Source of the DNA: JAUWCW01 sp030609125 [NCBI: Candidatus Rokuibacteriota bacterium]
GTDB taxonomy: Bacteria; JAUVQV01
Length of the DNA stretch: 5,596 bases
NCBI GenBank assembly: GCA_030609125.1
Contig: JAUWCW010000152.1
Span: forward strand, 1-5,596
Direction of reading: 5' to 3'
This document shows, piece by piece, positions 1 to 1,163 of the stretch. The translations under genes were made by a program, and so were the position numbers. The notes below the pieces were generated by a model. That model had not been told where the DNA came from. It did not search any database and saw only the letters and a list, made by a program, of their open reading frames with translations. Numbering within the stretch: the stretch's first letter is position 1; each line of letters opens with the position of its first letter.

Positions 1-543
1 TACGTCGACCCCCTTGTTCTCGGCATCACCTGCCCCAGGCCGATCCGGTTCATCATGCTCAAGGAGTTCTGGGAAAAGCCCTTCATCGGATGGGTGTGCC
101 GCAAGGCCGGCTGCTTTCCGGTGGACCCTCTCGGACCGGCCACCGGCGCTCTCCGCCAGGCAATGACGGTCCTCCACGGGGGGAATGTCCTCGGCATCTT
201 CCCCGAGGGCGGAAGGTCACCGGACGGCCGCCTGCTTCCCGGCAAGGCCGGAATCGCCCTCCTTGTTCTGAAGACCGGGCTGCCCCTTGTGCCGGCAGCC
301 ATCCTGGGCGCGGACCGGGCCTATTCCAGAGAGATGCTCCTCCCCCGCCCCTACCGCATCACCGTGCGCTACGGCGCGCCACTGACTTTCCCTTCCCCCC
401 CACCCGAGAAGAAGAGGGATTTTCTCGCGCAGACCACTGAAGCAACCATGAGGGCCATCGCCGACCTGTACGCCTCCGCCGCAGACCCGGGGGTTGCCCC
501 CTCCGGCGATGCCGGTGTATACTGTAAAGAGGAGGAAATGTGA
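1..543 (+). CDS. plsC: 1-acyl-sn-glycerol-3-phosphate acyltransferase (PlsC family), 5' partial
   Basis: The frame is open from base 1, so the gene starts before the window; 180 residues are visible. The family transfers an acyl chain to the sn-2 position of lysophosphatidic acid, making phosphatidic acid at the inner membrane. The start YVDPLVLG is the end of the catalytic H(X4)D block: the Asp is residue 3 and the His lies upstream. Other blocks are GCFPVDP (about 37-43), the substrate-binding FPEGGRS (67-73), and LPLVPAAI (94-101). An internal ATG at 55 would remove the catalytic block and is not the true start. The last 20 or so residues, after the hydrophobic IADLYASAA, look non-conserved, and their codons also carry the ribosome-binding site of the next ORF. 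The stop TGA abuts that ORF's ATG, which suggests translational coupling. The family call is firm; exact acyl specificity cannot be read from the sequence. Confidence 0.93.
   Translation, partial: YVDPLVLGITCPRPIRFIMLKEFWEKPFIGWVCRKAGCFPVDPLGPATGALRQAMTVLHGGNVLGIFPEGGRSPDGRLLPGKAGIALLVLKTGLPLVPAAILGADRAYSREMLLPRPYRITVRYGAPLTFPSPPPEKKRDFLAQTTEATMRAIADLYASAADPGVAPSGDAGVYCKEEEM
494..523 (+). promoter_or_regulatory. Possible sigma-70 promoter inside the end of plsC
   Basis: TTGCCC (494-499) and TATACT (518-523) are separated by 18 nt. The -10 matches TATAAT in 5 of 6 positions and sits in a locally AT-rich patch of otherwise GC-rich coding sequence. Initiation would fall near 530, almost on the AGGAGG of the small ORF, so the leader would be unusually short. 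The -35 is weak. The promoter may be coincidental, but it would allow the small ORF to be expressed separately from plsC. Confidence 0.25.
530..535 (+). promoter_or_regulatory. Strong Shine-Dalgarno for the 19-codon ORF
   Basis: A perfect AGGAGG lies 8 nt before the ATG at 544, which is ideal spacing. It is only 4 nt from the GTG at 540, so it favours 544 as the start. It is a better ribosome-binding site than those of the larger genes here, and it is the main reason to take the tiny ORF seriously. Confidence 0.7.
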
Positions 544-603
544 ATGAAGAAGACTTACATCAGGCCCAGGATAGTCGGCACATCAGGCGTTCATCCCTGC
601 TGA
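544..603 (+). CDS. Putative 19-residue peptide of unknown function
   Basis: The ORF encodes MKKTYIRPRIVGTSGVHPC and ends at TGA. I do not recognise it as a named family. Evidence that it is translated: a perfect AGGAGG at optimal spacing, an ATG directly abutting the plsC stop, and codons that make a sensible basic N-terminus followed by a Gly/Ser turn and a terminal His-Pro-Cys. The pattern Y5-x-x-P8-x-I10 resembles the YxxP leader motif recognised by RRE domains in lasso-peptide and related RiPP precursors. However, there is no obvious core after it and no maturase gene in the window. It could be a small RiPP-like or redox/metal-binding peptide, the start of a longer product if UGA encodes selenocysteine, or a non-functional leader. 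No signal peptide or membrane segment is seen. Existence is moderately supported; function is unknown. Confidence 0.5.
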   Translation: MKKTYIRPRIVGTSGVHPC

Positions 604-610
604 ATAAGCG

Positions 611-632
611 GCGGAAGCGTCAAGTCTTTCGC
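611..632. other. Stem-loop just downstream of the small ORF's UGA
   Basis: GCGGAAG (611-617) pairs with CTTTCGC (626-632) to form a 7-bp stem with one G-U pair and an 8-nt loop, CGTCAAGT. It starts 7 nt after the UGA at 601-603. No T-run follows directly, so it is not a standard terminator by itself. Its position, stem length and a G at the second loop position resemble a bacterial SECIS element, but in the opposite strand the same bases encode the fmdB C-terminus and stop, so chance pairing is possible. Confidence 0.35.
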
Positions 633-928
633 GGGGGTCTCGTCTTGCGGGCCTTTTTCGATGCCTCCGGTGCTTTGGGCTTGGTCTTGTCCCGGGGCTT
701 CTTTTTCCCGCGGGCTTTTTTGTCAGCCTCCAGCCCCGCCTTGCGGTCCTTGCTCGGGTAGTCCGTAACGTACCACCCCTCGCCCTTGAGGATAAAGGCC
801 GAAGCGGAAATCAGCCTCTTCATGGCGCCGCCGCACTCTTCGCATCTCGGTTCCGCCACCGAGGCGCCCTGCAGCAGCAGCTCAATCCGCCGTCCGCATT
901 CCCTGCACTGATACTCGTAAATAGGCAT
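620..928 (-). CDS. FmdB-family zinc-ribbon protein with lysine-rich tail
   Basis: A protein of 102 residues starting MPIYEYQC, the classic opening of the FmdB/CxxC_CxxC regulatory-protein family. The frame stays open 36 codons further upstream, but the ATG at 928 has a GGGAG (938-942) 9 nt away and begins exactly at the conserved family N-terminus. Two CxxC pairs (C8/C11 and C29/C32) would bind one zinc. The family's aromatic segment FILKGEGWYVTDY follows at about 45-57. From about residue 60 to the end the chain is dominated by Lys, Arg, Ala and Pro, a disordered basic tail likely to contact nucleic acid or the ribosome. FmdB was first described as a putative regulator of formamidase and amidase genes, but most members have no proven role. 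The gene is transcribed alone from its own promoter, and its tail is antisense to the region downstream of plsC. Family firm, function open. Confidence 0.9.
   Translation of the reverse strand: MPIYEYQCRECGRRIELLLQGASVAEPRCEECGGAMKRLISASAFILKGEGWYVTDYPSKDRKAGLEADKKARGKKKPRDKTKPKAPEASKKARKTRPPRKT
691..721 (+). terminator. Possible Rho-independent terminator for plsC and the small ORF
   Basis: CCCGGGG-type pairing: CCCG (691-694) with CGGG (711-714) and GGG (695-697) with CCC (707-709), with one bulged G at 710 and a 9-nt loop. One C and then six Ts (716-721) follow. The T-runs here are antisense to fmdB lysine codons, so they arise from coding constraint and may not have been selected as a terminator. 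A weaker hairpin with two G-U pairs (636-653) and five Ts (654-658) lies upstream. Confidence 0.35.
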
Positions 929-1087: not shown

Positions 1088-1163
1088 GCGGGCATAGCTC
1101 AGTTGGTAGAGTACAAGCTTCCCAAGCTTGGTGTCGCGGGTTCGAATCCCGTTGCCCGCTCCA
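1088..1163 (+). tRNA. tRNA-Gly, anticodon CCC
   Basis: A full cloverleaf can be folded by eye. The acceptor stem GCGGGCA/TGCCCGC is perfect, and the D arm is GCTC/GAGT with AGTTGGTA in the loop. The anticodon arm is CAAGC/GCTTG with loop TTCCCAA, giving anticodon CCC, which reads GGG. The variable loop is GTGTC, and the T arm is GCGGG/CCCGT with loop TTCGAAT. The discriminator base is T (U73), as expected for bacterial tRNA-Gly, and the CCA end is encoded at 1161-1163. G-U pairs close the D and T stems. Nothing resembling a terminator follows; the ribosome-binding site of the next gene starts within about 8 nt. Confidence 0.97.

What the first reader, a model, noticed from the sequence alone, without database searches (positions are those of the whole stretch)
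530..603. Tiny ORF after plsC with an ideal ribosome-binding site and a YxxP ... HPC peptide
Directly seen: AGGAGG, 8 nt, ATG touching the plsC stop, and a 19-residue product, MKKTYIRPRIVGTSGVHPC. A YxxP element in a short basic peptide recalls leader motifs bound by RRE domains in lasso and related RiPP systems (established). The terminal Cys, preceded by His-Pro, could be a modification, metal or thioester site (inference). No maturase is nearby in this window, so if it is a RiPP the enzymes act in trans or lie upstream.
Basis: partly seen in the sequence, partly recalled or inferred. Interest (0 to 1): 0.6.

Follow-up and report, generated by a model that had tools for sequence, protein, structure and literature searches.

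The report
Precursor peptide of GeoRSP radical-SAM system
The tiny 19-residue gene is real: it belongs to a widespread family of short peptides ending in Val-His-Pro-Cys that appears to be the missing raw material of an orphan bacterial peptide-modifying enzyme set, and whose gene copies often sit beside giant electron-carrying cytochromes.

Summary
The ORF (544-603, AGGAGG 530-535) encodes MKKTYIRPRIVGTSGVHPC. It belongs to a large family of 17-20-residue peptides, consensus MKK(x)YxKPxVVGSxxVHPC-stop, that no NCBIfam model hits. I read 130 pattern-found copies, mostly from Nitrospirota and Desulfuromonadales/Geobacter. All three stop codons follow the Cys, so it is not generally a selenopeptide. 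The family tracks the GeoRSP cassette (PqqD-like TIGR04302, radical SAM TIGR04303, SPASM TIGR04304). In 198 genomes of a Nitrospirota phylum sample, 11 of 11 with TIGR04303 have the peptide, against 3 of 187 without. In 297 genomes of Geobacter's phylum it is 20 of 21 against 2 of 276. In 16 loci the peptide gene lies between the radical SAM and SPASM genes. The window's own genome holds the cassette on another contig, so it would act in trans. A GeoRSP PqqD model is closest to a lasso RRE solved with its leader; the peptide carries the YxxPx[LVIFA] motif of such RREs. Many dispersed copies follow giant multiheme cytochromes. Best reading: this is the GeoRSP precursor, bound by its RRE and modified near the terminal Cys. 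Chemistry and product are unknown; a surface redox or metal cofactor is my guess.

The parts
544..603 (+). GeoRSP-associated precursor peptide gene, MKKTYIRPRIVGTSGVHPC + TGA
   Evidence: family profile match E 8.8e-10 at this place in the own genome
530..535 (+). Shine-Dalgarno AGGAGG, 8 nt before the ATG
   Evidence: 122 of 130 family copies have >=5/6 AGGAGG
556..573 (+). YxxPx[V/I] leader motif (YIRPRI), proposed RRE-binding site
   Evidence: motif described for discrete lasso RREs in PMC13381572 (passages); Y in 74 of 76 profile-found copies, F in 2
589..600 (+). VHPC C-terminus, proposed modified end
   Evidence: HPC in 74 of 76 and Cys followed at once by a stop in 75 of 76 profile-found copies
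494..523 (+). promoter-like site TTGCCC-18-TATACT, possible own promoter
   Evidence: 1 found, 0.1 expected; consensus match only
628..651 (+). terminator-like stem-loop followed by CCTTTTTCGA
   Evidence: 4 sites found in the stretch, 0.6 expected; consensus match only
1..543 (+). 3' part of a plsC-like acyltransferase; upstream neighbour, linkage apparently not conserved
   Evidence: PF01553 for this member

Best explanation
The ORF is a precursor peptide of the GeoRSP system, a PqqD-like RRE protein (TIGR04302) plus a radical SAM/SPASM enzyme (TIGR04303) plus a SPASM-only protein (TIGR04304). Shown: it is a real, conserved gene family; it co-occurs with the cassette in two phyla; it lies between the radical SAM and SPASM genes in 16 loci; and the cassette is present in the window's own genome on another contig. 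Inferred: the PqqD-like protein holds the N-terminal MKKxYxKPxV segment by its YxxPxV motif and presents the short C-terminal segment (SxxVHPC) to the radical SAM enzyme, which alters the fixed Val-His-Pro-Cys end, most likely at the Cys, with the SPASM-only protein as partner. Several dispersed copies per genome are served in trans by one cassette. Weaker inference: the product leaves the cytoplasm and works with secreted multiheme cytochromes, NosD-like beta-helix and CarboxypepD_reg proteins as a small redox- or metal-binding cofactor, with YedE (and, in Desulfuromonadales, a cysteine desulfurase family protein) supplying sulfur or selenium.
For: Co-occurrence: 11 of 198 genomes of a Nitrospirota phylum sample have TIGR04303; all 11 have the peptide, and 3 of the other 187 do; Fisher p 1e-15. 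In 297 genomes of the phylum of Geobacter sp. AOG1, 21 have TIGR04303 at E<=1e-60, 15 over cut-off; 20 of 21 have the peptide, as do 2 of the other 276; p 8e-28. TIGR04303 is over cut-off in 11 of 12 genomes chosen for the peptide and in 0 of 14 controls. Linkage: in 17 of 118 pattern stretches the peptide starts 45-209 nt after the end of a radical SAM match on the same strand; in 16 of 17 a SPASM match follows. By the match coordinates, 9 of 20 genomes have it within 150 nt of the radical SAM match. L174 shows the same adjacency in a Nitrospirota genome. Among 132 ribosome-site-led small ORFs outside large ORFs in 29 GeoRSP loci, this family is the only one whose pentapeptides recur in four or more loci. 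Own genome: PqqD, rSAM and SPASM in a row on C84 behind YedE-like and NosD-like genes. Recognition: a GeoRSP PqqD model (pLDDT 79) has as best PDB match TbiB1, a lasso RRE solved with its leader (E 4.5e-5); TruD, another lasso B1 and PqqD come next. The peptide has the YxxPx[LVIFA] motif of such RREs. Partners: the upstream gene has >=3 CxxCH in 35 of 92 non-GeoRSP copies, against 15 of 386 other genes in the same loci.
Against: Peptide without the radical SAM match: G091, G132, G153 (rescored in full, still none over E 1e-60; no PqqD either), G464 (no PqqD) and G511 (PqqD at 64.3 bits). Searches scored at most 10 and 7 candidates per genome, and G464 and G511 were not rescored, so some radical SAM genes may have been missed. 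Radical SAM without peptide: G440 (379.8 bits, under the cut-off). G068 has two partial radical SAM matches at distant places. In the window's genome the peptide is not beside the cassette, no secreted partner is adjacent, and the third protein scores 80.2 bits against a cut-off of 300. Genomes are related, so the Fisher p-values overstate the evidence. The PqqD model rests on five sequences, and the other four models had pLDDT 61-66. No binding, modification or product was observed; the cofactor/cytochrome role rests on gene neighbours alone.
Confidence: 0.85

Rival explanations
1. The peptide belongs to the GeoRSP pathway but is not its substrate: a regulatory or leader peptide, or a small partner protein of the maturase or the secreted proteins.
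For: Direct modification was not tested. Many copies are followed closely by terminator-like hairpins, by eye.
Against: Changes concentrate at third codon positions. Leader peptides normally lie upstream of what they control, whereas 16 of 17 linked copies lie inside the operon between two maturase genes. The cassette has a PqqD-like protein with an RRE fold and the peptide carries the motif. No other small ORF recurs in four or more of the 29 GeoRSP loci checked.
Confidence: 0.1
2. The TGA after TGC encodes selenocysteine, making a Cys-Sec selenopeptide that runs on beyond residue 19.
For: The window and both G001 copies end in TGC-TGA. YedE, called a putative selenium transporter, is in GeoRSP clusters.
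Against: Stops after the Cys are TGA 70, TAA 45, TAG 15 of 130 copies and TGA 42, TAA 21, TAG 12 in 76 profile-found copies, one reading on. The RNA from 595 to 660 folds no better than shuffles (z -0.44), and Rfam lists nothing there.
Confidence: 0.02
3. The peptide is the precursor of an antimicrobial or signalling RiPP.
For: Short RRE/radical SAM-modified peptides are often bacteriocins or signals (general knowledge).
Against: The C-terminal end is almost invariant across phyla, unlike variable bacteriocin cores. I recognised no dedicated exporter with peptidase or immunity gene by eye in the clusters listed, but made no model search for them. Fixed ends and redox-protein neighbours resemble mycofactocin and PQQ more.
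Confidence: 0.1
4. A chance ORF after plsC.
For: It is only 19 codons long, and plsC linkage does not seem conserved.
Against: Family conservation, ribosome-binding sites and substitution pattern.
Confidence: 0.005

Closest known systems
GeoRSP system (NCBIfam TIGR04302, TIGR04303, TIGR04304)
   Same: The three genes flank or co-occur with the peptide. In the window's genome two of the three proteins pass the curated cut-offs.
   Different: No NCBIfam model hits the peptide, so the system has no substrate model that I could find. The peptide would be the missing part.
Mycofactocin (MftA/MftB/MftC)
   Same: A tiny precursor with an invariant C-terminal end, a small partner protein and a SPASM radical SAM enzyme; TIGR03962 is among the nearer models to a GeoRSP rSAM (E 8.8e-59). 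Passages of PMC3023750 describe an invariant CGVY end and a proposed redox-carrier role.
   Different: The end is VHPC instead of CGVY. The precursor is often multi-copy and dispersed, and the linked proteins are multiheme cytochromes and beta-rich secreted proteins instead of nicotinoproteins.
PQQ (PqqA/PqqD/PqqE)
   Same: PqqD-type chaperone (PQQ_PqqD 56.6 bits, over its cut-off of 46, for the window genome's protein) and a PqqE-like SPASM enzyme.
   Different: PqqA has a Glu-Tyr core (recalled). The window peptide has no Glu and its only Tyr is in the N-terminal motif.
Lasso peptide leaders and their RREs
   Same: YxxPx[LVIFA] motif (PMC13381572, passages); the PqqD model is nearest to TbiB1.
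   Different: Only about seven residues follow the leader-like part, with no Asp or Glu acceptor in the window peptide. It works like the lasso recognition step but is not a lasso peptide.
Selenobiotic / thio(seleno)oxazole system (TIGR04081 peptide, TIGR04082 SbtM)
   Same: Tiny radical SAM substrate (recalled for TIGR04081); TIGR04082 is a distant relative of a GeoRSP rSAM (E 1e-20).
   Different: TIGR04081 does not match the window peptide, and Sec is excluded by the mixed stop codons.

Membership tests
RRE-dependent RiPP precursor | Ribosomally encoded, conserved short peptide gene | tested here: met
RRE-dependent RiPP precursor | Genetically linked RRE protein and modifying enzyme | tested here: met
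   (16 of 17 loci with GeoRSP matches on both sides); in trans in the window genome
RRE-dependent RiPP precursor | Leader motif known to bind an RRE of this kind | tested here: met
   YIRPRI fits [Y/W]xxPx[L/V/I/F/A]; RRE fold nearest to a lasso B1 protein. Sequence and fold only, binding not shown
RRE-dependent RiPP precursor | Post-translational modification of the core | not testable with these tools
   needs mass spectrometry
GeoRSP system | TIGR04302 + TIGR04303 + TIGR04304 in one cassette | tested here: met
   L175: 155, 595.7 and 303.9 bits, all over cut-off. Window genome: 100.6 and 445.7 over cut-off, third 80.2 bits under cut-off 300
GeoRSP system | Peptide present when the cassette is present and absent otherwise | tested here: met
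   peptide in 31 of 32 genomes with TIGR04303 (E<=1e-60) and in 5 of 463 without, over; the six exceptions are listed under evidence against
Lasso peptide | Core able to form a macrolactam: acidic residue at core position 7-9 (recalled) | tested here: not met
   no Asp or Glu in MKKTYIRPRIVGTSGVHPC
Lasso peptide | Linked asparagine-synthetase-like cyclase and B2 protease (recalled) | not tested
   none recognised by eye in the clusters listed; no model search made
Selenobiotic peptide TIGR04081 | Match over cut-off 30.5 bits | tested here: not met
   only hit in the own genome is 13.7 bits, at another place
Selenoprotein | Conserved in-frame UGA with downstream structure | tested here: not met
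   mixed stops; no significant fold
Mycofactocin precursor TIGR03969 | C-terminal Cys-Gly-Val-Tyr | tested here: not met
   C-terminus is VHPC; defining end from PMC3023750 passages

The most novel reading that the evidence does not exclude
GeoRSP makes a previously unrecognised peptide-derived cofactor with a modified His-Pro-Cys end, produced from many tiny genes placed beside the proteins that use it. It serves giant extracellular multiheme cytochromes and NosD/CarboxypepD_reg surface proteins, and would be a new component of extracellular electron transfer or metal handling in Geobacter and Nitrospirota.
Probability: 0.3. Interest if true: 0.92.

Novelty: new variant of a known kind. Interest (0 to 1): 0.77.

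Why it matters
It gives an orphan radical SAM maturase system, named by NCBI but without any substrate model that I could find, a concrete and testable substrate. It also exposes a large family of 17-20-residue genes of a size that gene callers tend to miss (general knowledge). The copies are dispersed and often placed beside giant multiheme cytochromes, which makes a link between a RiPP-like cofactor and extracellular electron transfer directly testable in Geobacter relatives held as named strains, such as Geomobilimonas luticola and Pelotalea chapellei.

Tried and rejected
Selenopeptide: rejected, because TGA, TAA and TAG all follow the Cys, the downstream RNA fold is unremarkable and Rfam lists nothing there.

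plsC partnership: not supported. Neither G001 copy is beside plsC. In 93 upstream genes the acyltransferase model is not among the 25 of 46 families listed, although the window's own gene matches it; 1 of 86 downstream genes matches it.

TIGR04081 selenobiotic peptide: no match in the window. A known NCBIfam peptide family: none for the window peptide or for 8 relatives. Rfam element near Geobacter copies: none at gathering score in 15 loci, 127,508 bases.

dN/dS: pN/pS over the free codons is 0.61, but synonymous differences are near saturation (pS 0.78), so I rely on the codon-position counts.

Early weak protein matches L003, L004 and L006 in other phyla lie inside longer frames and were dropped as chance. 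Five partial profile matches at E 0.03-0.1 (G112, G135, G143, G187, G201) were dropped before the count. In one search the E<=0.001 limit was used as given.

My listings of gene clusters had minimum lengths of 60-100 aa and so could not show other small ORFs; one search was run to check for these and found none recurring in four or more of 29 loci apart from this family.

first tried to count the ends of profile-found copies with a faulty expression and found 0; one search is the mended count.

Literature: six searches aimed at GeoRSP or the peptide listed no paper on either, judged by titles and abstract starts plus passages of PMC4289311 and PMC3023750. I did not open the other listed papers, such as PMC2825233. 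Searches were on RRE motifs and YedE; of their hits I saw passages of PMC12710340 and PMC13381572. Subscription journals are mostly not held, so this is not proof of absence.

Full report
What is in the window. The ORF is exactly as described: AGGAGG at 530-535, an 8-nt spacer, ATG at 544 touching the plsC stop, product MKKTYIRPRIVGTSGVHPC, stop TGA at 601-603. A promoter-like site (494-523) ends just before the ribosome-binding site and a terminator-like stem (628-651) follows, so it can stand as a minigene (consensus matches only). The window is a whole 5,596-base contig, C281 of a 2.3-Mb genome. Other contents: a tRNA-Gly, an FmdB-like zinc ribbon gene, a PHP-domain gene and mreD; the RodA-like and penicillin-binding-protein-like reading of the ORFs between is mine by eye.

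It is a conserved gene family. The only other genome held of this phylum, G001 of the same order, carries two relatives, MRKAKYVKPGVVGGSNVHPC and MKKTKYAKPMVVKGSNVHPC, each with its own ribosome-binding site, away from plsC. Of 133 matches in all loci then held, three were dropped (duplicate, no start codon, in-frame stop), leaving 130 with the window's own. By record titles they come mostly from Nitrospirota, Desulfuromonadales/Geobacteraceae and 'Deltaproteobacteria', with single records from Deferrisomatales, Desantisbacteria and Phycisphaerae. 122 of 130 have at least 5 of 6 bases of AGGAGG upstream, against 7.1% of 14,284 other ATGs in the same loci; codon differences concentrate at third positions. 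Tyr, Pro, His, Pro and Cys are fixed by the pattern itself, so I checked 76 profile-found copies: Tyr in 74 (Phe in 2), HPC in 74 (YPC 1, QPC 1), and the Cys followed at once by a stop in 75. Stops are TGA, TAA and TAG, which rules out a selenopeptide as the general reading.

It travels with GeoRSP. I recalled an orphan radical SAM system named GeoRSP and tested it. TIGR04303 is over its cut-off in 11 of 12 genomes chosen because they carry the peptide, including the window's own and G001; the twelfth, G068, has two partial matches at distant places; 0 of 14 control genomes pass. Then without such choice: of 198 genomes in the phylum of Nitrospiraceae bacterium Ngb-4, 11 have TIGR04303 and all 11 have the peptide, while 3 of the other 187 have it (five partial matches at E 0.03-0.1 dropped). 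Of 297 genomes in the phylum of Geobacter sp. AOG1, 21 have TIGR04303 at E<=1e-60, six of them at 380-399 bits, just under the curated cut-off; 20 of these 21 have the peptide, against 2 of the other 276. Fisher p is 1e-15 and 8e-28, treating related genomes as independent. Exceptions: peptide without radical SAM match in G091, G132, G153 and G464 (no PqqD match either) and G511 (PqqD match only); radical SAM without peptide in G440. Searches scored at most 10 and 7 candidates per genome; G091, G132 and G153 were rescored in full, G464 and G511 were not.

It is in the operon. Among the 118 pattern stretches, 17 have the peptide 45-209 nt downstream of the end of a GeoRSP radical SAM match, same strand; in 16 of 17 a SPASM match follows, and in the other (L041) the contig ends within about 300 bases. 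L043 is a tight operon: NosD-like (by eye; no NCBIfam hit), PhnD-like, TPR-like (by eye), YedE, PqqD, radical SAM, peptide, SPASM, cysteine desulfurase family protein. By the match coordinates, 9 of 20 genomes have the peptide within 150 nt of the radical SAM match and five more have it on the same contig within 31 kb. In the Nitrospirota sample G092 has it directly after the radical SAM gene, and G067, G069 and G226 have it within 14 kb on the same contig. As a control for other substrates, of 132 ribosome-site-led small ORFs outside large ORFs in 29 GeoRSP loci, only this family has pentapeptides recurring in four or more loci (NVHPC in 16). In the window's own genome, contig C84 holds PqqD, radical SAM and SPASM genes in a row, preceded by genes that by eye match the PhnD-like, TPR-like, YedE and NosD-like genes of the other clusters, so the peptide would be served in trans.

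How it probably works. The GeoRSP PqqD protein of the window genome matches TIGR04302 (100.6 bits, cut-off 100) and PQQ_PqqD (56.6, cut-off 46). An AlphaFold model of a Desulfuromonadales member (best pLDDT 79.3, the other four models 61-66; five sequences in the alignment) has as best PDB matches five chains of TbiB1, a lasso RRE solved with its leader (best E 4.5e-5), then the heterocyclase TruD, another lasso B1 with leader, and PqqD. Passages of PMC13381572 give the motif of discrete lasso RREs as [Y/W]xxPx[L/V/I/F/A]; the window peptide has YIRPRI. This leaves a short fixed C-terminal end, VHPC, as the likely site of change. That this end is modified, and how, is inference. The parallel with mycofactocin, whose precursor has an invariant C-terminal CGVY and a proposed redox role (PMC3023750, passages), suggests a cofactor-like product over a bacteriocin.

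What the product may be for. Copies per genome range from 1 (window genome, G065, G067, G068, G069) to 14 (G066) in the 10 of 11 genomes with a match. Dispersed copies often stand just after giant multiheme proteins: in Geobacter sp. AOG1 after predicted proteins of 1,564 aa (11 CxxCH), 2,098 aa (34) and at least 1,426 aa (11); in Geomobilimonas luticola after a 2,051-aa, 34-CxxCH protein, followed by a CarboxypepD_reg-like gene, a second peptide, a NosD-like gene (both by eye) and, further on, the GeoRSP cluster. Over the non-GeoRSP copies, 35 of 92 upstream genes have three or more CxxCH, against 15 of 386 other genes in the same loci (genomes not independent). By Pfam, 21 of 93 upstream genes have paired CXXCH and 13 CarboxypepD_reg; 24 of 86 downstream genes have CarboxypepD_reg, and 4 NosD. 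More than half of the upstream genes are thus not cytochromes, and the window's own copy has neither partner. YedE, called a putative selenium transporter (385.9 bits, cut-off 200), and a cysteine desulfurase family protein (436.1, cut-off 377) in the L043 operon point to sulfur or selenium supply. I take a small redox- or metal-binding cofactor for surface proteins as the likeliest function, with modest confidence.

Novelty. No NCBIfam model hits the peptide, and six literature searches aimed at it listed nothing on GeoRSP or its substrate; the library lacks most subscription journals. The kind (RRE plus radical SAM acting on a tiny peptide) is known. New are the substrate family of an orphan maturase and the dispersed, often cytochrome-linked layout.

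Noticed in passing
L217 2882-7576, L218 2779-9075, L219 2918-7198, L256 4780-10935: Giant multiheme proteins (11 to 34 CxxCH) directly upstream of peptide copies in Geobacter sp. AOG1 and Geomobilimonas luticola.
   Followed up: partly
upstream genes in L017, L023, L028, L032, L036, L049, L085, L100, L111, L116 and others: 17 of the 35 multiheme upstream proteins have a shared W-N-x-x-T/S-x-W type motif within 12 residues of their C-terminus, usually soon after a CH pair; it may be a sorting or interaction signal.
   Followed up: no
L258 (G066:C1:12000-31900): A Nitrospirota genome with 14 peptide copies, several alternating with duplicated 270-300-aa CarboxypepD_reg-like proteins (by eye); many of its peptides have a second Cys (SVCVHPC).
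   Followed up: partly
L175 4014-5930: An ArsP_1 / Cu-Zn efflux-like permease beside GeoRSP in a Nitrospirota genome, distantly like SaoE; hints at metal or metalloid handling.
   Followed up: no
L242, L237, L247: Natural variants of the end: HPC followed by Gln, YPC and QPC, useful for testing which residue matters.
   Followed up: no
L261 and L138 (G068): GeoRSP radical SAM matches split between two distant places in one chromosome assembly; a broken gene or an assembly error.
   Followed up: partly
L254 (G440:C137): A GeoRSP-like radical SAM and PqqD pair without a peptide match in its genome; possibly a diverged system with another substrate.
   Followed up: partly
window 1088-1163: tRNA-Gly (CCC) between the FmdB-like gene and a PHP-domain phosphatase-like gene.
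   Followed up: no
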